This document shows positions 32 to 23,624 of a DNA stretch of 64,000 bases, piece by piece. A model generated the notes under the pieces. The model did not search any database and was not told where the DNA came from. It was given only the letters and a program-made list of their open reading frames with translations. The stretch is from Micrococcus sp. 2A (GTDB lineage: Bacteria; Actinomycetota; Actinomycetes; Actinomycetales; Micrococcaceae), in the NCBI RefSeq assembly GCF_039519235.1, contig NZ_CP154351.1, forward strand, positions 2,418,001 to 2,482,000, read 5' to 3'. Within the stretch, counting starts at the first letter, position 1, and each line of letters opens with the position of its first letter. The translations under genes were made by a program, and so were the position numbers.

Positions 32-47
32 TGTGACCCTAGTCACA
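32..47. promoter_or_regulatory. Perfect CRP/GlxR-type operator
   Basis: The sequence TGTGACCCTAGTCACA is an exact TGTGA-N6-TCACA dyad. It lies downstream of the GAF-regulator gene, so it probably serves a gene left of the window. The 1-96 stretch holds no gene and also carries two copies of aggttgcac. Confidence 0.6.
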
Positions 48-13660: not shown

Positions 13661-14755
13661 TCATGCGGTGCGCATCACCCGCACGGGGTCCCGGAACGCG
13701 GCGAAGGCCGCCGGGAGCAGGCTCGCCACCACGGCGGTGAGGGCCGCCAGCACAGCCACGCCCACCACGAAGTCCATTCCCAGAGCACCTCCCTGCCCCA
13801 CGACGACGGCGTAGCCCGTCCCCGCACCCACCACCGCCCCGAGCACCGCCGGCGCGGCGGTGCGGACCGCCACGAGCAGCACGAGGTCCGCGCGGCCGAT
13901 GCCCAGGGTGCGGCGGCGGCCGAGGTCGCGGCGACGGATGAGCACGTCGGCGAGCACCACGATCGCCACGAAGAAGGCGCCCGCCCCGAGGATGAGCAGC
14001 AGCAGGGATCGGCCCAGTCCGGCCAGCTCCCCGGTGATCGTCTCGTTCCCGGCGGCCAGCGCCCGCGCGGTCTGCACCTGCGAGGAGCGAGGGTCGGGGT
14101 CGATCACGGCCAGGGCGGAGTCCTGCATGGCGCGGGTGCCGGCGGTGTCCGGGGCCAGGACGCGGACCTGCTGGACCACGAGGGAGGCCGGGGCGGCGGG
14201 CACGGCGAGCGCGTACCCGTCGAGGTCCTCGAACGGCGTGCGCGCCTCGAACGCGCCCACCACGGCCCACTGACGTCCGTCTCCGGACTCGAGCGCCCCG
14301 GAGGGCTGGGCCAGGCCCAGCTCGGCCAGCTTCGCCTCGGGCACCACCACCTCCCCGGGGCCCGGCAGGCGGCCGCGCGTGAGCTCGACGCCGCGGTCCA
14401 GGGTGCCCACCACGTGGGTCACCGCCACGCGCGTCCCGCCCGCACCGATCGCGGCGTTCACCGTGTCCACGGGCATGTCGCGGGCCAGGGCGGCCTCGGC
14501 GGCGTCGAGACCGGCGAGGGTGGTGACGGTGGCGCCGGTGAGGAAGCCGGTGCCGCCCGAGTCCGTGACGGTGAGCACGCGCGCCGCGGGCCCGGAGAGC
14601 TCCGCGGCGACGGCGGCCTCCGTGGCGGCCTGACGGCCCACCGTGGCGACGGCGGCGAAGCACATGGCGGCCACCACCAGCAGCACGAGAGCGGAGGGCA
14701 CGGGCGAGGTGCGCGCGGCGGTGAGGGCCTCGCGCAGCAGGGTTCGCAGATTCAT
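13661..14755 (-). CDS. FtsX/MacB-like ABC permease of the peptide-associated operon
   Basis: A 364-residue membrane protein with MacB-like topology: one N-terminal helix (ALVLLVVAAMCFAAVATV, about 22-40), an extracytoplasmic domain of roughly 200 residues, and three C-terminal helices (SLLLLILGAGAFFVAIVVLA, LVAVRTAAPAVLGAVVGAG, VVGVAVLAALTAVVAS). It is shorter than typical MacB permeases. It lies 16 nt behind the ATPase gene, at the end of a five-gene operon. With the ATPase and the membrane-fusion protein it should form a MacAB/YknXYZ-like machine that moves or senses a peptide at the cell surface. Direction of transport and substrate are inferred. Confidence 0.75.
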   Translation of the reverse strand: MNLRTLLREALTAARTSPVPSALVLLVVAAMCFAAVATVGRQAATEAAVAAELSGPAARVLTVTDSGGTGFLTGATVTTLAGLDAAEAALARDMPVDTVNAAIGAGGTRVAVTHVVGTLDRGVELTRGRLPGPGEVVVPEAKLAELGLAQPSGALESGDGRQWAVVGAFEARTPFEDLDGYALAVPAAPASLVVQQVRVLAPDTAGTRAMQDSALAVIDPDPRSSQVQTARALAAGNETITGELAGLGRSLLLLILGAGAFFVAIVVLADVLIRRRDLGRRRTLGIGRADLVLLVAVRTAAPAVLGAVVGAGTGYAVVVGQGGALGMDFVVGVAVLAALTAVVASLLPAAFAAFRDPVRVMRTA

Positions 14756-14771
14756 GGGCGGGCCTCGAGGG

Positions 14772-15416
14772 TCATAGCCGCACCACCTCGTCCGCCCGCG
14801 CGACGACGGCCGGGTCGTGCGTGGCCACCACCACGGTGCGCCCCTCGGCGGCCGTCTCGGCCAGTGCGTCGAGCACGAGGGAGGCGTTGTCCGGATCCAG
14901 GTTGCCCGTGGGCTCGTCGGCCAGCACCACCGCGGGAGTGTTCACGAGCGCCCGGCACACCGCCACGCGCTGGGCCTGGCCGCCCGAGACCTGGCCCGGC
15001 CGGTGCTCGGCCCGGTGTCCCAGGCCGAAGCGCTCCAGCAGCGCCCGGGCCCGCTCCTCCAGCACCCGACGCTCCAGCCCTGCGTACAGACCGGGCTCCA
15101 CCACCGAGTCCAGGATGGGCCGGGACGGGTCCAGCTCGGCGTCCTGGAACACGAACCCCACGGACGTGGCCCGCAACCGCGCCCGGCGCCGGTCCGGCAG
15201 GGCGGAGGCCTCGACGTCGCCCAGGCGCACCACGCCCGCCGAGGGCGTGAGCATAAGCCCCAGCACGTACAGCAGCGTGGACTTGCCGCGCCCGGACGGG
15301 CCGGTGAGCGCGGTGACGGCGCCAGGGGTGAAGCGGTGGGTCAGGCCGTCGAACAGCTCCTCCGCGCCGCGCGTGTACGCGAAGCGCAGGTCCGCCACGG
15401 ACAGCTCCGCGTTCAC
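14772..15416 (-). CDS. ABC transporter ATP-binding protein (LolD/MacB class)
   Basis: A 214-residue ABC ATPase. Walker A is GPSGRGKS (about residues 38-45), the signature is VSGGQAQR, Walker B is VVLADEP followed by TGNLDP, and the switch His is in VVVATHDP. Two departures from consensus are visible: Walker A has R where S or A is usual (SGRGKS), and the usual Q-loop region reads FQDAELDPS. The GTG start at 15416 overlaps the stop of the membrane-fusion gene (GTGA), implying coupled translation. It energises the FtsX-like permease encoded next. Confidence 0.85.
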   Translation of the reverse strand: MNAELSVADLRFAYTRGAEELFDGLTHRFTPGAVTALTGPSGRGKSTLLYVLGLMLTPSAGVVRLGDVEASALPDRRRARLRATSVGFVFQDAELDPSRPILDSVVEPGLYAGLERRVLEERARALLERFGLGHRAEHRPGQVSGGQAQRVAVCRALVNTPAVVLADEPTGNLDPDNASLVLDALAETAAEGRTVVVATHDPAVVARADEVVRL

Positions 15417-16468
15417 GGCGCGCCGTTCAGCACGCGCACGGTCTCCCCGGCGTCCACGCCGTCCACCACGGCCAGGCCGTCCGCGGAGCCGCGGACGGTG
15501 ACGGTGCGCTCTTCCTCGACGCCGTCCTGCACCACGGTGACCACGACGGCGCCGCCGGGCTGGGTGCGCAGCGCGGACACGGGGACCACGGGCCCGGTGA
15601 CGGGCGGGACCACGTTGACCTTCGAGAGCAGGGAGGTGGAGGCCTCGGCTGGCAGGGAGTCGCAGTCCGCGCCGCACACCGCGCCGCCGTCGGGGGCGGT
15701 CAGGGGGATGCGGATCAGCCCTTGGTCGTCCGCGGTGGACTCGCCGGCCACGGCCTCCCACTCGTGCTCGCCGTGGGGCACGGTCACCGCGGTGCCGGCC
15801 GGGATCATGGCGGCCTGGTCCTGGTTGACCTCGATGGCGAACGTGGGCTCGTCGCCGGGGCGGGCGACGATGGTCTCGCCTCCCGCGAGCGCGCCGCCGA
15901 CGGCCGTTGCCTTCGCGTCCACGCTGAGTGCGGCGGGGAGTGATTCCAGCACCACGAGCTGGCCCAGCTCCACGGTGCCCGCGGCCGGGTAGTCGCGCTC
16001 GGTGAGCCAGCCGTTCCAGGCGACAGCGGTGGCCTCGTCCCAGGTGCCGGTGACCTCCACCTTCGCCCCCGTGGCGGCGAGCATTCGCTGGAACGCGGCG
16101 ACATCGCTGCCGGTGGCGCCCTCGTCGAGCGCCCGCCACTGGGGCAGCTCGCCCTGCACGGCGATCACGGGCTGCTGCGCGACGGCGTACAGCACGTCCC
16201 CGGCGGCCACCTCACCGGACTCCCCGGCCCGGGTGACGACGCCGGACAGCGCGTTCACGGCGGCCGGCGCCTGCTCGCGGGCCACGGACACGCCGAGGGT
16301 GATGACGCGGCCGAGCTCCTGCTCGGCGACGGTGACGACGGCGTCCTCGGACGGACGCTGATCGGCCTGGGCCGGAGGGGTGAGCGTGGCCCGGCCGGCC
16401 CAGAAGGCGAGGGCGGCGACGAGCACGAGCGTGAGGACGAGAGCGGCCCAGCGGGTGACCTTGCTCAT
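15413..16468 (-). CDS. Membrane-fusion/periplasmic adaptor-like protein with peptidoglycan-binding segment
   Basis: A 351-residue membrane-anchored exported protein. One N-terminal helix (LVLTLVLVAALAFWAG, about 11-27) is followed by an HlyD/MacA-type body. Residues about 120-165 (ATGSDVAAFQRMLAATG ... WNGWLTERDYPAAG) match a PG_binding_1 module, the arrangement seen in Gram-positive adaptors annotated as peptidoglycan-binding. The C-terminal half has barrel-sandwich-like strands and a VVPVSALRTQPGG adaptor motif. Its ATG overlaps the lipoprotein stop and its stop overlaps the ATPase start. It likely links the exporter to the cell wall. Confidence 0.75.
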   Translation of the reverse strand: MSKVTRWAALVLTLVLVAALAFWAGRATLTPPAQADQRPSEDAVVTVAEQELGRVITLGVSVAREQAPAAVNALSGVVTRAGESGEVAAGDVLYAVAQQPVIAVQGELPQWRALDEGATGSDVAAFQRMLAATGAKVEVTGTWDEATAVAWNGWLTERDYPAAGTVELGQLVVLESLPAALSVDAKATAVGGALAGGETIVARPGDEPTFAIEVNQDQAAMIPAGTAVTVPHGEHEWEAVAGESTADDQGLIRIPLTAPDGGAVCGADCDSLPAEASTSLLSKVNVVPPVTGPVVPVSALRTQPGGAVVVTVVQDGVEEERTVTVRGSADGLAVVDGVDAGETVRVLNGAP

Positions 16469-17193
16469 TCGGAGTATCCGAAGAGCATCGAGTCCGGGGG
16501 CTGAACCGGACAGGCTTCCGAGACCTCGGCGGAGCGCGCGTCCGTGAGGCCCATGATGGAGTCTTGCACGGGCCACCAGCTGATCCGCTCCGGCGTGTTG
16601 AAGGCCGCCAGCCATGTTTCCTTCGAGGGCCGCTGGGATGTGTCCACGGTGATGCCATGGTCCTCAAGACACGGGATGGCGTACTGGTCCCAATAGTCGT
16701 AGAGCAGGCGCAACTGAGCGTCAGAGAACTCCTGGTCCAGGCTCGGATCGATGGGGAACAGGGCATCGCAGGTCCATGAGACCAGTTTCACGGCCGCCTC
16801 CTGCGAGGGCGGCGGAGTGTCATACGTCACCCCCACCATAACCTCGTTGTACGTGGCGGGAACCCCTCGCTCGGTCATGCACTGCGCGGACCATCTCGCC
16901 TGCTCTTGCCTGGAGGTGGCCCACCCGCGACGGGTGACGGCCGGGGGGTTGCTGATGCCCAAGAAGGCGGCGTTTCGTGCGAGCTGTGACTCATACCAGC
17001 GCTCCCGCTCGTCAGCCTCGGTCATCCGCCGCTCGATCTTCTCGGTGGGCGTCCAGGTCTCGGGATCCCACACCTTCTCTGTAGGGGAACCGGTCGCCGC
17101 GGCGCTCGTGGACGGAGCAGTGGTCGCACATCCAGACAGAGTCAGAACAGCGGTCACCGCCGCGGCGGTGACCGCTGCGAACTTCGTCTTCAT
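16465..17193 (-). CDS. Lipoprotein of unknown family, peptide-operon member
   Basis: A 242-residue lipoprotein. The signal peptide ends in the lipobox LSGC (Cys22), followed by a Ser/Thr/Ala linker. The mature domain contains W-x-P-x-x-W-x-P-T near residue 44, paired cysteines (ARWSAQC, VSWTC, AIPC, SEAC) that could form disulfides, and a C-terminal EACPVQPPDSMLFGY motif. I recognise no family. A second copy, broken by an IS, lies upstream (19385-17731) and shares WTP, the ITDPP/ISNPP block and EACPxxPxDSxLYGF. It follows the secreted-peptide gene by 13 nt; a role in immunity, anchoring or sensing of that peptide is a guess from position. Confidence 0.7.
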   Translation of the reverse strand: MKTKFAAVTAAAVTAVLTLSGCATTAPSTSAAATGSPTEKVWDPETWTPTEKIERRMTEADERERWYESQLARNAAFLGISNPPAVTRRGWATSRQEQARWSAQCMTERGVPATYNEVMVGVTYDTPPPSQEAAVKLVSWTCDALFPIDPSLDQEFSDAQLRLLYDYWDQYAIPCLEDHGITVDTSQRPSKETWLAAFNTPERISWWPVQDSIMGLTDARSAEVSEACPVQPPDSMLFGYSE

Positions 17194-17206
17194 CTTGGGC
17201 TCAACC

Positions 17207-17533
17207 TCAGTAGGGGTAATAGCAGTAGCCGTAGGTGCCCGACAGCAGAAGCGAGGTCGATGACCCCGTCCAGGTCTGCGTCATGCGGAGTCCGGAATCC
17301 CATCCATATTTGTATAGCCCAGGCTTCTTGGTGGTCTTTCCGCCGACGTTGTAATACATCGTGTCCGTATACCGCTGCTGCTCCACCTGCAGGCCGACAT
17401 ACCCGCCTCCGGCACTGCAGTCCTTCCTGCCAGTCTCTGACAACGCTTGCGCTGGCGCCGCTCCAGAGACCGCCAGCAATCCAGCGACAGCCACGCCAGC
17501 GCCTACCCTGCTGGCCCACTGCTTCACACCCAT
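17207..17533 (-). CDS. Small secreted two-cysteine peptide, bacteriocin-like
   Basis: A 108-residue precursor. The signal peptide has a basic start, core VAVAGLLAVSGAA and probable cleavage after APAQA (residue 30), leaving about 78 residues. The mature part has only two cysteines, Cys39 close to its start and Cys104 near the end (GYCYYPY), suggesting one end-to-end disulfide. It is rich in Tyr, Gly, Ser and Thr. It resembles secreted beta-strand peptides such as the lactococcin 972 group in size and export, but I cannot align it to that family. First gene of the operon: excellent ribosome site (GGAGGAGG), clear promoter and CRP-like operator. Function is inferred from the adjoining adaptor/ABC genes. 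Confidence 0.65.
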   Translation of the reverse strand: MGVKQWASRVGAGVAVAGLLAVSGAAPAQALSETGRKDCSAGGGYVGLQVEQQRYTDTMYYNVGGKTTKKPGLYKYGWDSGLRMTQTWTGSSTSLLLSGTYGYCYYPY

Positions 17534-17561
17534 GATGTTCCTCCTCCGATCTAAAGCCCCT

Positions 17562-17605
17562 TGTGAGGTGCGTCACACGCTATGGCGTGGCCCGCTCAGC
17601 GTCAA
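17562..17605 (-). promoter_or_regulatory. Peptide-operon promoter with perfect CRP-like operator
   Basis: Minus strand: -35 TTGACG (17605-17600), 17-nt spacer, -10 TAGCGT (17582-17577). Starting on the last base of the -10 is TGTGACGCACCTCACA (17577-17562), an exact TGTGA-N6-TCACA site. Its position over the start site suggests repression. The 17606-17730 gap shows no gene. Confidence 0.7.
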
Positions 17606-17798: not shown

Positions 17799-17825
17799 TG
17801 AAGTGCCCTGGGTTTCGTTCCGAGG

Positions 17826-18770
17826 TCAAGACGCAACGGGCGCTGAGTCCTGGTCGTGAGTGTAGGCCGCCTCGACCTCCGCGGGGGTGAGGTAGTCCAG
17901 GGCCTCGTGGAGGCGGGTGGTGTTCCACCAGTGCACCCACCCCATGGTGGCCAGCTCGACCGCCTCGACGGACTCCCAGATCCGCTTGGCGTGGATGAGC
18001 TCGGCCTTGTAGAGCCCGTTCACGCTCTCGGCCAGGGCGTTGTCGTAAGAGTCGCCCACGGTGCCCACTGAGGCGCTCACCCCGGCGGTGATGAGCGCAT
18101 CCGAGCAGGCCAAGCTGACTACCGCGATCCGAGTGGTGCACCAGGCCCTGGCGGCCACGGCTGGCGCCAGTGCTCAGCAGCGCGCGCTCCAAGGCCAGCA
18201 GCGGCAGCCCCACGGTGTGAAGGCTGCCCGAGACAGCCCATCCCACGATGCGCCGGGAGTAGACGTCGGTGATGAACGCGACGTAGCAGAACCCGCCCAG
18301 GATCCTGACGTAGGTGATGTCAGCGACCCACAGCTGGTTCGGCCGCTCGGCGGTGAAGCAACGTTCCACGAGATCAGGGCGGGCGTCTGTCTCTCCTGCA
18401 GGGCGGGTCGTGATCGGCTTGCGGCCACGGCGGATTCCCTGCAGGCCGGCGGTACGCATGAGACGGGCGACCTGGTCCCGGCCGATCTCCCACCCGGCGC
18501 GGGCCATCGCATGGTGCATCTTGCGGACGCCGTAGACGCTGTAGTTCTCCATGTGAATCCGGCGGAGTTCCTCGAGCAGCAGGACGTCTCGCAGGGCCCG
18601 CGCGGAGGCCGGTCGTGTCTTCGCGGCGCGGTAGCTCACGTCGAGGTGATGAACCCACATTCCGTCGCACGAAGGGTGCGGCAGATGGCCTCGACCCCGA
18701 ACTGATCGCGGTGTTCGTCGATGAACGCGATCATCTCGTCGTGGGGCGGTCGAGCTCCGCTGCGAAAAAA
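17826..18770 (-). pseudogene. IS3-family transposase OrfB, two frameshifts
   Basis: Integrase-core half of the transposase. The expected reading passes from FFRSGARPPHDEMIAFIDEH in one frame to YRAAKTRPASARALRD in another near 18645, and back to ACSDALITAGVSASVG near 18120. The two indels (about one and two bases lost) restore frame overall. The DDE residues are all present: WVADITY, HSDRG and ALAESVNGLYKAEL. With two frame breaks the protein should be inactive unless the breaks are sequencing errors. Confidence 0.8.
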
Positions 18771-19045
18771 GCCGAGGCGGCCTTGAGGATCTCGTTCGCG
18801 CGCCGCGCCTCGGCCAGCTCGCGTTTGAGCCTGCGGATCTCCTCCGCAGGGGTCTCTGAGACGGGTGCCTGAGCTATTTCGTGGCCGTGGCGTTGGCACC
18901 ACATCCGCAAGGTCTCTTCGCTGACATCGAGCTGCGGGGCTACCGCCCGGATGGAATGCGAACGGGGCCCTCCTTGCGTGGCTTGGCGTTCCAGGACCAT
19001 CCTGACCGCGCGCTCACGCAGCTCGGGGCTGAACTTCTTGGGCAT
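18731..19045 (-). CDS. IS3-family transposase OrfA
   Basis: A 104-residue HTH protein: FSPELRERAVRMVLE start, a recognition helix around LDVSEETLRMWC, and a leucine-zipper-like ending (EEIRRLKRELAEARRANEIL). It binds the IS ends. The slippery T-run in its last codons (GCTTTTTTC, within 18764-18772 on the minus strand) is placed to give the -1 OrfAB fusion product. Confidence 0.88.
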   Translation of the reverse strand: MPKKFSPELRERAVRMVLERQATQGGPRSHSIRAVAPQLDVSEETLRMWCQRHGHEIAQAPVSETPAEEIRRLKRELAEARRANEILKAASAFFAAELDRPTTR

Positions 19046-19093
19046 GTTCCGATTCTCCTTCGTTGGGATCGGAACGAAACCCAGGGCGCTTCA

Positions 19094-19385
19094 CTCTCCG
19101 CTGCACGCGAGGAGGATCCGTGATGCGGAGCGTCTGGGCCCGCCGTTCGAGAGCGGAGCGGTAGGCCGCTTCCTTCTCGGCCTCCGCCGTCAGGACCGGT
19201 TGAATCGCGACTGGCGGCGTCCACCGAGATGGACTCCATTCCTCCGGCGCTGTCGCGCCTGCGCAGTCAGCGACGTCCTGTCCTGCGGATCCGCCTTCAT
19301 CCCCGCACGCGGCGAGATCGACAGTGAGCGCAAGCCCGACTGCCAGACCCCGGCCACGTCTCCCTGTGATGTCAGGCCCGCTCAT
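19094..19385 (-). pseudogene. 5' remnant of lipoprotein paralogue
   Basis: Encodes a lipoprotein signal sequence (RRGRGLAVGLALTVDLAAC lipobox) and a mature start with SRWTPPVAIQPVLTAEAEKE and LRITDPPRVQRR, homologous to the first 97 or so residues of the intact lipoprotein. It ends at the IS right end. About 125 codons present in the intact copy are missing between this and the 3' remnant. The only strong ribosome site (AGGAGG) serves an ATG at 19407 whose frame stops after 11 codons, so the start region may also be shifted. Confidence 0.75.
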
Positions 19386-19435: not shown

Positions 19436-19456
19436 TATGAGCTACGTCACATAGTA
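19436..19456 (-). promoter_or_regulatory. Promoter and CRP-like operator of the broken lipoprotein copy
   Basis: Minus strand: -10 TACTAT (19456-19451), then TGTGACGTAGCTCATA (19451-19436) starting on the last base of the -10. This is the same geometry as the peptide-operon promoter, with one operator mismatch. Confidence 0.5.
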
Positions 19457-19532: not shown

Positions 19533-21521
19533 TCACCGGGCGTCTTCTCCCGAGGCCGCACCGCCGCCGTCGTCCTCCCCGCCCTTGAACTGGCTCATGT
19601 AGAGCCGGTGGTAGGCGCCCCTGGCCGCGAGGAGCTCGGCGTGGTTGCCCTGCTCCACGATGTCGCCGTGCTCCATCACGAGGATCACGTCGGCGTCGCG
19701 GATGGTGCTGAGCCGGTGGGCGATCACGAAGCTCGTCCGGTCCGAGCGCAGCGCCGCCATTGCGCCCTGGACCAGCACCTCGGTGCGGGTGTCCACGGAG
19801 GAGGTCGCCTCGTCCAGGATCAGCAGCGAGGGCTGCGCCAGGAACGCGCGGGCGATGGTGATGAGCTGGCGCTCGCCCGCGGACACGTTGGAGGCGTCCT
19901 GCTCGATGACGGTGTCGTAGCCCTCGGGCAAGGTGTGCACGAAGCGGTCCACGAACGTGGCCCGCGCCGCGGCGACGACCTCCTCGTCCGTGGCGTCCTG
20001 CCGGCCGTAGCGGATGTTCTCCCGGATGGTCCCGCCGAAGAGCACCGCGTCCTGGAGCACCATTCCCGTGTGGGAGCGCAGCTCCTCCCGGCTCACGGTG
20101 CGGGTGTCGACACCGTCCACCAGGATGCGGCCGCCGTCGACCTCGTAGAAGCGCATGAGCAGGTTGACCAGGGTGGTCTTGCCGGCGCCGGTCGGGCCGA
20201 CGATGGCGACCGTCTGGCCCGGCTCCGCCACCAGGTTGAGGTCCGTGATGAGGGGCTTGGCCTCCGAGTAGGAGAACCGCACGTGCTCGAACTCCACCCG
20301 CCCGCGCACCGGCTGCGGCAGGTGCGCGGGGGCCGCGTCGCGGTCCTCCTCGTCCTCGTCCAGCAGCTCGAAGATGCGCTCGGCCGAGGCGACGCCGGAG
20401 ATGAGCATGTTGGACATGCCCGCCACCTGCCCCAGCGGCTGGTTGAACTCGCGGGAGTACTGGATGAACGCGGTCACGGCGCCCAGGGTCATCTGGCCGC
20501 TGGCCACGCGCAGGCCGCCCACGACGGCGATGCCCACGTACCCCAGCCAGTTCACCCACTGCATGATCGGCATGATCATCCCGGAGAAGAACTGCGCCTT
20601 GAACGCGGACTCGTAGAGGGCGTCGTTGCGCTCGTCGAAGCGCTCGGCCATGTCCGCCTGGCGGCCGAAGACGGTGACCAGCTCGTGGCCCGTGAAGGAC
20701 TCCTCGATGTGGCCGTTGAGCTGACCCGTCTCGCGCCACTGCGCGGTGAACAGCGCCTGGGACTTCTTGCCGATCACGCCGACGACGACGCCGGCCACCG
20801 GCAGCGCGATGAGCGCGATGAGCGCCAGCTGCCAGGAGAGCCAGAACATCATGCCGACGATGCCGATGATGGTCAGCACCGAGTACACGAGCGTGGCGAA
20901 CGCCTGCTGCATGGCCTGCTGGACGTTGTCCACGTCGTTGGTGGTGCGGGAGAGCAGGTCGCCGCGCTGGCGGGTGTCGAAGTAGCTCAGCGGGAGGCGG
21001 TTGAGCTTGGCCTCGATCTCCTCGCGGAGGCGGAAGACGATACGCATGACGATGTCGTTGAGCACACGGCCCTGGAGCCACATGAAGGTCTGCGCCACCA
21101 GGTACATGCCCAGGACGATGAGGATCAGCCGCCCCAGCTCCGCGAAGTCGATCCCCGCGCCGGGCGTGAACGCCATGCCGGAGAGCATGTCCGCGGCCTG
21201 GCCCTGACCCTGCGCGCGCAACCCCTCGATCACCTGCTCGCGGGACACCCCGGCGGGCATGTCCTTCGAGACCACGCCCCCGAAGATCACGTCCATGGCC
21301 TGGCCGAGCACGTGGGGCGCCCACACGTTGAACACGACGGCGACCAGCACCATCAGCGCCACGAGCACCACGCCCGCGCGCTCGGCGCCGAAGAGGCCCA
21401 GGAGGCGCTTGGCCGAGGGCCAGAACGCCTTCGCCTTGCGGCCGGGGCCGCCGCCCCATTCGTCGGTGGCGCCCGACTCGTGGATGTCGGCGATCTCGGC
21501 GTCGGTCAGTTCGGCGCTCAT
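19533..21521 (-). CDS. ABC exporter half-transporter (membrane + ATPase), subunit 2
   Basis: A 662-residue type IV ABC exporter. An acidic N-terminus precedes six membrane helices (about 55-380), then the nucleotide-binding domain: Walker A GPTGAGKT, signature VSAGERQL, Walker B LLILDEATS, switch His AHRLS. The signature serine is preceded by VSAG rather than LSGG, which is common in one half of heterodimeric exporters. The ATG at 21521 overlaps the stop of the partner gene, so the pair is co-translated and likely assembles as a TmrAB/LmrCD-like multidrug or lipid exporter. Confidence 0.88.
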   Translation of the reverse strand: MSAELTDAEIADIHESGATDEWGGGPGRKAKAFWPSAKRLLGLFGAERAGVVLVALMVLVAVVFNVWAPHVLGQAMDVIFGGVVSKDMPAGVSREQVIEGLRAQGQGQAADMLSGMAFTPGAGIDFAELGRLILIVLGMYLVAQTFMWLQGRVLNDIVMRIVFRLREEIEAKLNRLPLSYFDTRQRGDLLSRTTNDVDNVQQAMQQAFATLVYSVLTIIGIVGMMFWLSWQLALIALIALPVAGVVVGVIGKKSQALFTAQWRETGQLNGHIEESFTGHELVTVFGRQADMAERFDERNDALYESAFKAQFFSGMIMPIMQWVNWLGYVGIAVVGGLRVASGQMTLGAVTAFIQYSREFNQPLGQVAGMSNMLISGVASAERIFELLDEDEEDRDAAPAHLPQPVRGRVEFEHVRFSYSEAKPLITDLNLVAEPGQTVAIVGPTGAGKTTLVNLLMRFYEVDGGRILVDGVDTRTVSREELRSHTGMVLQDAVLFGGTIRENIRYGRQDATDEEVVAAARATFVDRFVHTLPEGYDTVIEQDASNVSAGERQLITIARAFLAQPSLLILDEATSSVDTRTEVLVQGAMAALRSDRTSFVIAHRLSTIRDADVILVMEHGDIVEQGNHAELLAARGAYHRLYMSQFKGGEDDGGGAASGEDAR

Positions 21522-23284
21522 GCCAGCTCCTCCTCGCGGATCTGGGAGTCCACGATCTCCTGATAGGTCCGGTTCGAGGCCAGCAGCTCGGCGTGGGTGC
21601 CGCGTCCGACGACGCGCCCCTCGTCCAGCACGATGATCTGGTCCGCGTCGGTGATGGTGGCCACGCGCTGGGCGACCACGATGCGGGTGGTGTCCGCGGC
21701 GGCGTCGTCCAGGGCGGCGCGCAGGCGCGCGTCCGTGGTGACGTCGAGCGCGGAGAAGGAGTCGTCGAAGACGAGGACGCGCGGCTTCGCCACGAGCGCG
21801 CGCGCGATGGAGAGGCGCTGGCGCTGGCCGCCGGAGACGTCCGTGCCGCCCTGGGAGATGCGCGACTCCAGGCCGGACACCTCGCCCTCCTCGGGGGCGG
21901 GCGCCGGGGTGGTGCGGGCCCGCACGAAGTCCGCGGCCTGCGCGGTCTCCAGCGCGGCCCAGATCTCCTCGTCCGTGGCGTCCGGGGCGCCGAAGCGCAT
22001 GTTCTCCGCGACCGTGCCCGAGAACAGGTACGGCCGCTGCGGGACGAGCGCGACGGCGTCGGTCAGCTCGGCGCGGGCGAGGTCGGTGACGGGGACGCCG
22101 TCGACCAGGACCTGCCCGGACGTCGCGTCGTAGAGGCGCGGGACGAGGCTGATGAGCGTGGACTTGCCGGAGCCCGTGGGGCCGATGATCGCCGTCGTGG
22201 TGCCGGGGGCGACGGCGAAGCTCACGCCGTCGAGCACGGGGGCCTCGGCGCCGGGGTAGGCGAAGGTGACGTCGCGGAACTCGACCGCGCCGGCGCGGCG
22301 CGCCGGGGTCACGGGGTTCGCGGGCTCGACGACGGTCGGGACCGTGTCCAAGACCTCGCCGATGCGGCGGGCGGAGATCACGGCGCGCGGGAGCATCATC
22401 ATCATGAAGGTGCCCATCATGACCGCCATGAGGATCTGCAGCAGGTACTGCATGAAGGCGGTGAGGGAGCCGATCTGCACGAGACCCTGGTCCACGCGGT
22501 GGCCGCCGAACCACAGCACGGCGGCGGTGGCCAGGTGCAGGATCATCGTGATCACGGGGCCGAGCAGCACGAACAGCCGGCCGATGCGCACGGAGGTGTC
22601 CGTGAGGACGGCGTTGGCGTCGCTGAACCGCTGCGCCTCGTGGCGCTCGCGCACGAAGGCACGGACCACGCGGATGCCCATGACCTGCTCGCGCATGACG
22701 CCGTTGACGTCGTCGATGTTGTCCTGCATGCGCTGGAAGAGGGGCATGAGGCGGCTGACGATCCACGCCACGATGACGAGCAGCACGGGCACGGAGACCC
22801 ACACGAGCCAGGAGAGCCCGGCGTCCTCGCGGATGGCCATGACGATGCCGCCGATGGCCATGATCGGCACCGCGACCATGAAGTTCAGGGCCATGAGCGT
22901 GAGCATCTGGACCTGGTTGACGTCGTTGGTGCCGCGCGTGATCAGCGTGGCGGCGCCGAAGCGGCCCAGCTCCTCCGCGGAGAAGCCGTCCACGCGGGTG
23001 TAGATCGCGCGGCGCAGGTCCCGGCCCACGCCCATCGCGGCCTTCGCCCCGAACCAGACGGCGGAGATGGCCGCGACGACCTGCACGAGCGCGACGCCGA
23101 GCATGACGAGCCCGATGCCCCAGATGCGGCCGGTGTCCCCCTTCGCGATGCCCTCGTCGATGATGCGGGCGTTGAGGCTGGGCAGGTAGAGCATGGCCAG
23201 CGTGCTGACGAGCTGCAGCACGAGCACGGCGAGGATCGCCCCGAGGTACGGGCGGCCGTGGCGGCGCAGGAGGGTCCAGAGCAT
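21518..23284 (-). CDS. ABC exporter half-transporter (membrane + ATPase), subunit 1
   Basis: A 588-residue ABC exporter subunit with six helices (about 15-310) and a C-terminal ATPase: Walker A GPTGSGKS, signature VSGGQRQR, Walker B VLVFDDSFSALD, and a switch position in VVAQRVATI. In this subunit the Walker B catalytic glutamate is replaced by Asp (FDDS) and the switch residue is Gln (AQR) rather than His. These are the marks of a degenerate site, so the heterodimer probably has one catalytic and one degenerate ATP site. First gene of the pair. Start ATG 23284 was chosen because the N-terminus MLWTLLRRHGRPYLG matches the family. Confidence 0.88.
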   Translation of the reverse strand: MLWTLLRRHGRPYLGAILAVLVLQLVSTLAMLYLPSLNARIIDEGIAKGDTGRIWGIGLVMLGVALVQVVAAISAVWFGAKAAMGVGRDLRRAIYTRVDGFSAEELGRFGAATLITRGTNDVNQVQMLTLMALNFMVAVPIMAIGGIVMAIREDAGLSWLVWVSVPVLLVIVAWIVSRLMPLFQRMQDNIDDVNGVMREQVMGIRVVRAFVRERHEAQRFSDANAVLTDTSVRIGRLFVLLGPVITMILHLATAAVLWFGGHRVDQGLVQIGSLTAFMQYLLQILMAVMMGTFMMMMLPRAVISARRIGEVLDTVPTVVEPANPVTPARRAGAVEFRDVTFAYPGAEAPVLDGVSFAVAPGTTTAIIGPTGSGKSTLISLVPRLYDATSGQVLVDGVPVTDLARAELTDAVALVPQRPYLFSGTVAENMRFGAPDATDEEIWAALETAQAADFVRARTTPAPAPEEGEVSGLESRISQGGTDVSGGQRQRLSIARALVAKPRVLVFDDSFSALDVTTDARLRAALDDAAADTTRIVVAQRVATITDADQIIVLDEGRVVGRGTHAELLASNRTYQEIVDSQIREEELA

Positions 23285-23624
23285 GGGGGTCCTAGGGGTG
23301 GCTGGTGCGGGGCGGATCGGGGCGGATCGGGTGGCGGCGGCGGCGCGCCTGGTGAGGCCTTGACGAAGGCGCCGCGGGCGGCGGGACGGGGCGCGTCGTC
23401 GGGCCCCGTCGATCCCCATTCTGCACCCGGCGGCGGACGGGCCAGGACGGGCCGCCGTCGTCCGTGCACCACCCCGTTTCTCGCCTCGCGCAGGCTTCGG
23501 GACTCACCTCGTCCAGGCCTCGCCGCTCACCTGTGACGACCCGCACTTCCGGACCGCGACGCACGGTCCGAAGCGGCTGAAAGGCACGGGCGAAGCGCGG
23601 GTCGGGGTCCTGCATCCCGTCGGA

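What the first reader, a model, noticed from the sequence alone, without database searches (positions are those of the whole stretch)
13661..17605. Secreted peptide plus lipoprotein, cell-wall-binding adaptor and MacB-like ABC transporter in one CRP-regulated operon
Seen: five minus-strand genes with 4-nt overlaps or short gaps (13-16 nt): a 78-residue secreted peptide with one Cys at each end, a Cys-rich lipoprotein of no recognised family, an adaptor with a PG-binding segment, an ATPase and an FtsX permease. Known: bacteriocin and peptide-toxin loci often combine a small precursor with an ABC exporter or immunity unit, and CPBP or MacAB-like partners. Inferred: this could be a bacteriocin-like or signalling peptide system in which the transporter exports the peptide or protects the producer. 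The permease, adaptor and peptide are unusual as a set, and the lipoprotein is duplicated locally.
Basis: partly seen in the sequence, partly recalled or inferred. Interest (0 to 1): 0.8.

Follow-up and report, generated by a model that had tools for sequence, protein, structure and literature searches.

The report
Candidate bacteriocin with lipoprotein immunity operon
A Micrococcus operon makes a small secreted protein together with a matching lipoprotein and a membrane pump, and the way these genes are swapped, broken and paired across related bacteria suggests an undescribed kind of bacteria-killing protein with its own antidote.

Summary
The five minus-strand genes are real and laid out as described: a Sec-type precursor (78-aa mature part, one Cys near each end), lipoprotein, adaptor, ATPase and FtsX-like permease. 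Peptide and lipoprotein match no named family convincingly. The set stays together in 13 of 13 peptide loci examined; 8 of 11 Micrococcus genomes have the peptide. Best reading: an unmodified bacteriocin-like protein with lipoprotein-plus-ABC self-immunity, working like nisin's NisI/NisFEG without sequence kinship. Evidence: peptide and lipoprotein form an exchangeable cassette (one mosaic genome acquired the variable half of the mature peptide and two thirds of the lipoprotein in one piece; in close pairs the cassette's synonymous divergence is near saturation beside a young transporter). The locus has moved between species (99.4-100% identity inside flanks of mostly 82-96%). Three loci have broken peptide genes but open lipoprotein and transporter genes. 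Of 39 further lipoprotein or adaptor loci, 17 carry a secreted protein of the same layout without sequence similarity; 22 showed none. Export by the ABC unit is disfavoured. CRP control is only suggested: a TGTGA-N6-TCACA-like palindrome abuts the -10 box in 7 of 7 leaders. Killing activity is untested.

The parts
17207..17533 (-). Small secreted protein (candidate bacteriocin), Sec-type signal peptide 1-30, mature 78 aa with Cys39 and Cys104
   Evidence: relatives; AlphaFold2 all-beta model, block mean pLDDT 88-95 from residue 31; no Pfam, NCBIfam or PHROG family
16465..17193 (-). Lipoprotein lipo1, candidate cognate immunity protein (lipobox Cys22 plus four conserved Cys)
   Evidence: co-exchanged with the peptide; only weak, sub-threshold family matches
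15413..16468 (-). Membrane-fusion-type adaptor; relatives carry a PG_binding_1 domain
   Evidence: RND_mfp E 2.7e-4, 20 bits, cut-off 94.9; endolysin family E 7e-4; PF01471 in 8 of 12 aligned adaptors
14772..15416 (-). ABC ATPase, MacB/LolD/FtsE type
   Evidence: PF00005 91 bits; TIGR03608 148.8 bits, cut-off 254.85
13661..14755 (-). FtsX-like permease
   Evidence: PF02687 19.8 bits, below cut-off 25.5; next to the ATPase in 13 of 13 peptide loci
17562..17577 (-). Palindrome TGTGACGCACCTCACA overlapping the -10 box, Crp/GlxR-type operator candidate
   Evidence: score 9-10 of 10 and 28-30 nt before the ATG in 7 of 7 Micrococcus leaders (five distinct)
17577..17605 (-). Promoter candidate: -35 TTGACG 17605-17600, -10 TAGCGT 17582-17577
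   Evidence: read from the sequence; not found by the generic scan
19094..19385 (-). N-terminal remnant of a second lipoprotein (lipo2) whose peptide gene is gone
   Evidence: 44% identical to lipo1 over lipo2 residues 50-97; its leader is 84% identical to the peptide leader of L016
17731..17798 (-). C-terminal tail of the second lipoprotein
   Evidence: 11 of 20 residues identical to the lipo1 C-terminus
17799..19093 (-). IS3-family insertion sequence interrupting lipo2, 25-bp terminal inverted repeats 24/25 matched
19436..19451 (-). Operator-like palindrome of the older, peptide-less cassette (TGTGACGTAGCTCATA)

Best explanation
The locus encodes an unmodified bacteriocin-like protein and its self-immunity. 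Steps: (1) the 108-aa precursor leaves by the Sec pathway and folds outside as a small all-beta domain, probably closed by a Cys39-Cys104 disulfide (signal and fold predicted; disulfide inferred). (2) It acts at the envelope of closely related competitors; the target is unknown, a cell-wall precursor or membrane site being the natural guess (inferred). (3) The co-encoded lipoprotein is the strain-specific immunity protein that binds the mature peptide at the producer's membrane (inferred from cassette linkage). (4) Adaptor, ATPase and FtsX-like permease form an ABC complex that removes the peptide from membrane or wall; within Micrococcus it is the shared, more conserved part while the peptide-lipoprotein cassette is swapped. 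(5) Micrococcus species exchange cassettes by recombination; loci with lost peptides but kept immunity, and old lipoproteins broken by an IS, are the debris of that turnover.
For: Constant set: lipoprotein, adaptor, ATPase and permease accompany the peptide in 13 of 13 peptide loci, with gene order and strand reshuffled; in Micrococcus 9 of 11 genomes have lipoprotein and adaptor, and the other two have none of peptide, lipoprotein and adaptor. Cassette exchange: in L017 leader, signal peptide and first part of the mature peptide are L015-type; from about codon 58 of the peptide (break between codons 34 and 67 at the 100-nt resolution; protein comparison) to about two thirds of the lipoprotein the DNA is 98-100% L016-type, then about 300 nt again L015-type. 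Old alleles beside a young transporter: window against L016 dS 1.66 (peptide) and 1.44 (lipoprotein) against 0.08, 0.19, 0.12 for adaptor, ATPase, permease. Transfer between species: about 4 kb (L013) and 5.5 kb (L014) at 99.4-100% identity; left flanks 82-96%, right flanks 93-96% (L013) and 82-87% (L014). Peptide-specific decay: in-frame TAG in L014 and L017, frameshift in L056, lipoprotein and transporter open. Orphan lipoproteins: lipo2, and 9 of 48 lipoprotein places without adaptor within 4 kb (two of the nine have one 4.6 kb away and one is a weak hit). Wider family: of 39 fetched loci chosen by lipoprotein or adaptor, 17 have nearby a secreted protein of 70-88 aa mature length with a Cys near each end. 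Precedent: NisI lipoprotein binds nisin and NisFEG expels it (PMC8538875, passages).
Against: No killing, binding or immunity assay exists for any member; everything is comparative. The peptide is under purifying selection (dN/dS 0.15-0.27 in six pairs), with no sign of positive selection. No detectable homology or clear fold match to a known bacteriocin. In 22 of 39 distant loci no matching peptide was found (some of these contigs are cut near the lipoprotein). The distant peptides share only layout, not sequence, with the window peptide, so their kinship is by analogy. The contrast between cassette and transporter vanishes for the most distant Micrococcus locus, L018 (dS 1.0-1.2 against 0.8-1.0). 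The exchanged piece in L017 is half of the mature peptide, not all of it, and that gene carries a stop. The palindrome overlaps the -10 box, so conditions of expression are unknown.
Confidence: 0.7

Rival explanations
1. The ABC complex with its adaptor is a MacAB-like exporter dedicated to the peptide, and the lipoprotein is an accessory of export or maturation.
For: One strand and close spacing in the window and the other six Micrococcus loci; MacAB-type machines move proteins out of the envelope (recalled).
Against: The peptide has a complete Sec-type signal ending in AQA; lipoprotein and transporter persist beside broken peptide genes and in loci without a recognisable peptide; in L019 and L056 the peptide and lipoprotein are divergent from the transporter.
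Confidence: 0.12
2. The peptide is a distant member of the lactococcin 972 family and the trio is the usual Lcn972 ABC unit with an added adaptor and lipoprotein.
For: Same logic: a small secreted bacteriocin gene followed by ABC genes predicted to give immunity (PMC4055356 and PMC11796350, passages; the latter says that the role of the B and C genes is unverified); the ATPase is related to TIGR03608 (148.8 bits).
Against: No PF09683 match in the own genome or in any of 16 peptides at E up to 10; profile comparison with three actinobacterial Lcn972 members aligns only the signal peptide, probability 5.8; the ATPase is well under the TIGR03608 cut-off and the permease matched no NCBIfam model.
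Confidence: 0.12
3. The peptide is not a toxin but a signal, inhibitor or envelope-stress ligand (pheromone, protease or lysozyme inhibitor) sensed or cleared by the lipoprotein and ABC unit.
For: Strong purifying selection on the peptide; an operator-like site in 7 of 7 leaders; no toxin signature.
Against: Linked cassette exchange, decay of the peptide alone in three loci, orphan lipoproteins and transfer between species are typical of toxin-immunity pairs and not expected of a housekeeping signal.
Confidence: 0.13
4. The lipoprotein and ABC unit form a general antimicrobial-resistance or lipoprotein-trafficking module and the peptide gene is an unrelated hitchhiker.
For: In 22 of 39 distant loci no matching peptide was found; MacB, LolD and FtsE are the nearest ATPase models.
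Against: Peptide and lipoprotein stay neighbours through three different gene orders, and secreted proteins of the strict layout occur 19 times in 189 kb near the anchors and 0 times in 321 kb of flank (layout defined after seeing the hits, and one flank hit comes close to it).
Confidence: 0.08

Closest known systems
Lantibiotic self-immunity NisI/NisFEG and SpaI/SpaFEG
   Same: Lipoprotein plus ABC transporter encoded with a secreted antimicrobial peptide; proposed division of labour (bind and expel) is the same (PMC8538875, passages).
   Different: Peptide here is an unmodified-looking Sec-type beta protein of 78 aa; an additional adaptor is present; one FtsX-like permease; no NisI/SpaI-type family model matched the lipoproteins.
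Lactococcin 972 / streptococcin B loci (PF09683, TIGR03608)
   Same: Small secreted protein followed by ABC genes predicted to give immunity; scb loci that lack a functional peptide but keep the other genes are reported (PMC11796350, passages).
   Different: No profile match; lipoprotein and PG-binding adaptor are extra; in the two actinobacterial Lcn972 loci looked at (L020, L021) the gene after the peptide is a membrane protein of about 690 aa, here the permease has 364.
MacAB / DevBCA-type tripartite ABC systems
   Same: Adaptor, ATPase and FtsX-like permease trio.
   Different: ATPase and permease are separate genes, unlike MacB; adaptor is only weakly like RND_mfp (20 bits, cut-off 94.9); linked to a variable peptide-lipoprotein cassette.
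Polymorphic toxin-immunity cassettes
   Same: Variable toxin part exchanged together with its immunity gene.
   Different: A small secreted protein and not the end of a large carrier protein; a lipoprotein immunity protein was a lone exception in that survey (PMC3482391, passage).

Membership tests
Lactococcin 972 family (PF09683) | Mature peptide matches the family profile | tested here: not met
   0 of 16 peptides match any Pfam model at E up to 10; own genome 0 matches (the 14 control genomes were silent too, but the same model found 3 of 197 class genomes)
Lactococcin 972 family (PF09683) | ABC partner at TIGR03608 cut-off | tested here: not met
   148.8 bits against 254.85
Lactococcin 972 family (PF09683) | Same beta-sandwich fold | tested here: inconclusive
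Lantibiotic immunity (LanI/LanFEG) | Lipoprotein of the NisI/SpaI type | tested here: not met
   No Pfam or NCBIfam model of that kind listed for any of 11 lipoproteins; fold not compared with NisI directly
Lantibiotic immunity (LanI/LanFEG) | Modified lanthipeptide precursor | tested here: not met
   Peptide has a Sec-type signal and no family match; modification enzymes elsewhere in the genome were not searched for
Works like LanI/LanFEG | Lipoprotein binds the peptide and the ABC unit expels it | not testable with these tools
   Needs binding and immunity assays
Bacteriocin (functional class) | Kills or inhibits related bacteria | not testable with these tools
   Needs bioassay
Bacteriocin (functional class) | Toxin and immunity genes co-inherited, immunity outlasting toxin | tested here: met
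   Pattern met if the lipoprotein and ABC unit are taken as the immunity genes:
MacB | ATPase and permease in one polypeptide, equivalog cut-off | tested here: not met
   Separate genes; NF007826 164.6 bits against 966
Crp/GlxR regulon | TGTGA-N6-TCACA site in the promoter (consensus recalled) | tested here: met
   9-10 of 10 positions in 7 of 7 Micrococcus leaders
Crp/GlxR regulon | Binding and control by the regulator | not testable with these tools
   Needs footprint and expression data

The most novel reading that the evidence does not exclude
A large, so far unnamed class of unmodified bacteriocins in Actinomycetales: Sec-secreted proteins of 70-88 mature residues with a cysteine about nine residues from the mature start and another a few residues from the end (two members have five cysteines), so variable that members of different loci share no detectable sequence similarity, each paired with a lipoprotein of one family and one shared adaptor-ATPase-FtsX immunity machine, diversified by cassette swapping.
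Probability: 0.55. Interest if true: 0.82.

Novelty: new variant of a known kind. Interest (0 to 1): 0.7.

Why it matters
If right, Micrococcus and relatives carry a common weapon-and-antidote system that current family libraries miss because the peptides share layout and not sequence. It would give a way to find such proteins genome-wide (by the lipoprotein and adaptor), a new envelope target to look for, and a naturally recombining toxin-immunity pair in a genus with a naturally transformable member (M. luteus: PMC8467076, passages).

Tried and rejected

Literature: search listings gave no description of this peptide or gene set, and PMC12328743 (passages) was not relevant; only open-licence papers are held, so this is weak evidence of novelty.
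Full report
OBSERVATION. The genome is a single 2.62 Mb contig; a same-species genome (G601) has a contig of 161,231 bases, the length of the contig of Micrococcus sp. EYE_212 whose peptide is 100% identical. The peptide precursor has a Sec-type signal and a 78-residue mature part with one Cys near each end. The lipoprotein has a lipobox and four more cysteines, all invariant in the 11-row alignment. The peptide has no family in Pfam, NCBIfam or PHROGs and the lipoprotein only weak, sub-threshold ones. The ATPase is of the MacB/LolD/FtsE kind, below the curated cut-off of all 25 models shown of 196 matched; the permease is FtsX-like below Pfam's cut-off; the adaptor is weakly like RND_mfp, and PF01471 PG_binding_1 is found in 8 of the 12 aligned adaptors though not in the window's own.

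DISTRIBUTION. The peptide is present in 8 of 11 Micrococcus genomes, own and same-species included, two of them with an in-frame TAG. Lipoprotein and adaptor are each in 9 of 11, the same nine; G004 and G009 have none of the three. The ninth, G001, has two divergent lipoproteins, the transporter trio and an unrelated two-Cys secreted protein (L142). Outside the genus, clear peptide relatives occur in G038, G299, G312, G447 (two loci) and G464 among 396 genomes sampled from the order, and one database hit carries the name Trueperella abortisuis. All 13 peptide loci examined have lipoprotein, adaptor, ATPase and permease alongside, but in different arrangements: all on one strand in the seven Micrococcus loci and L054; peptide and lipoprotein divergent from the transporter in L019 and L056; peptide with the transporter and the lipoprotein divergent in L053, L055, L057.

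CASSETTE EXCHANGE. Within Micrococcus the peptide and lipoprotein are the variable part. Window against L016: amino-acid identity 64 and 44% for peptide and lipoprotein, 94, 97 and 97% for adaptor, ATPase and permease; dS 1.66 and 1.44 against 0.08, 0.19 and 0.12. Such near-saturated synonymous divergence beside a young transporter means old alleles swapped into place, not just fast protein change; dN/dS is 0.15-0.27 for the peptide and 0.25-0.50 for the lipoprotein over six pairs. Against L018, the most distant of the four loci compared, the contrast is nearly gone (dS 1.16 and 1.02 against 0.77-0.99). L017 (M. lacusdianchii; contig length 270,739 as) catches the event: leader and first 100 nt of the peptide gene 94-99% like L015, then L016-like (98-100%) from about codon 58 of the peptide through about two thirds of the lipoprotein gene, then about 300 nt 96-98% like L015, then L016-like again into the transporter (the codon from the translations). 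The variable second half of the mature peptide and most of the lipoprotein thus moved as one piece; the first half of the mature peptide is nearly the same in both types. L013 and L014 show transfer of the locus itself: blocks of about 4 and 5.5 kb at 99.4-100% nucleotide identity with the window; left flanks 82-96%, right flanks 93-96% in L013 and 82-87% in L014, less further out.

DECAY. The peptide is the part that breaks: in-frame TAG in L014 and L017 and a frameshift in L056, each with lipoprotein and transporter open. In the window, an older cassette upstream keeps its promoter-operator (84% identical to the L016 peptide leader) and a lipoprotein remnant, has no peptide gene left, and is split by an IS3 element at 17799-19093.

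WIDER FAMILY. In the same 396 genomes the lipoprotein profile hits 33 and the adaptor profile 38, 29 in common. A lipoprotein lies within 4 kb of 12 of 12 adaptor hits of 400 bits or more, 32 of 39 of 200 or more, and 32 of 48 of 100 or more; 39 of 48 lipoprotein places have an adaptor within 4 kb. I then asked whether loci chosen without reference to the peptide carry any small secreted protein. A scan for 80-165-aa frames with a Sec-type signal, a Cys early and a Cys late in the mature part gave 25 hits in 189 kb near lipoprotein or adaptor (four overlap called genes) and 6 in 321 kb of flank. Nineteen near hits in 17 of 39 loci share a strict layout (mature 70-88 aa, first Cys at 6-14, last Cys 2-5 residues from the end; 17 have exactly two Cys, two have five); none of the six flank hits meets it, one comes close. 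That layout was defined after seeing the hits. Twenty-two of 39 loci have no such protein by this scan; L102 and L094 have weaker candidates, and some contigs are cut close to the lipoprotein (L095, L156). Several loci have two peptides or several lipoproteins (L054, L091, L097, L099, L101, L102, L142). The distant peptides have no detectable sequence similarity to the window's, nor a family above its cut-off (nine tested against NCBIfam, ten against Pfam, best E 0.019 and 0.022).

STRUCTURE. AlphaFold2 predicts an all-beta domain for the mature peptide (mean pLDDT 80.6 overall, block means 88-95 from residue 31; three of five models have means of about 80, two are poor at 55 and 38) and a mainly helical fold with a beta hairpin for the lipoprotein (mean pLDDT 83.5). 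Neither has a convincing solved counterpart in the matches listed.

REGULATION. A TGTGA-N6-TCACA-like palindrome scores 9 or 10 of 10 and lies 28-30 nt before the start codon in 7 of 7 Micrococcus leaders (five distinct), each time abutting a TANNNT -10 candidate; 29 of 2000 random 120-nt stretches of the same loci (the leaders not excluded) score 9 or more. It is one of four places of TGTGAC-N5-TCACA in the genome. A Crp/GlxR-type protein is the natural candidate (recalled), and a site on the -10 box suggests repression more than activation; both are inference.

MECHANISM. I favour a bacteriocin with lipoprotein and ABC self-immunity, like NisI, which binds nisin, and NisFEG, which expels it (PMC8538875, passages). 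Shown: secretion signal by sequence, gene set, linked exchange, decay pattern. Inferred: toxicity, target, binding by the lipoprotein, removal by the transporter. It is not a member of the lactococcin 972 family by the tests made, although it may work along similar lines (PMC4055356 and PMC11796350, passages).

Noticed in passing
window 17799-19093: IS3-family element with 25-bp imperfect inverted repeats sits inside the older lipoprotein copy; the same insertion is present in L013 and L014 and probably L161, where the same N-terminal remnant occurs, so it predates or travelled with the transferred block.
   Followed up: partly
window 32-47: Another perfect, fully palindromic TGTGACCCTAGTCACA site lies at the very start of the window; its target gene was not examined.
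   Followed up: no
window 19533-23419: A pair of ABC exporter genes is the conserved upstream neighbour in six of the seven fetched Micrococcus loci (own included) but not beside the L018 or L019 loci.
   Followed up: partly
L018:2746-5487: In the M. lylae locus the permease reading frame runs on to 913 residues, as if fused to a downstream protein.
   Followed up: no
L099:6313-8940: Two unrelated peptide-lipoprotein pairs are transcribed away from each other, with the transporter trio about 0.8 kb further on, as if cassettes accumulate next to one machine.
   Followed up: partly
L101:6447-9175: Two different two-Cys secreted proteins and three lipoprotein copies in a row next to a divergent transporter trio.
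   Followed up: partly
L054:1715-7470: Two peptide genes upstream and an extra lipoprotein downstream of the permease in one locus.
   Followed up: partly
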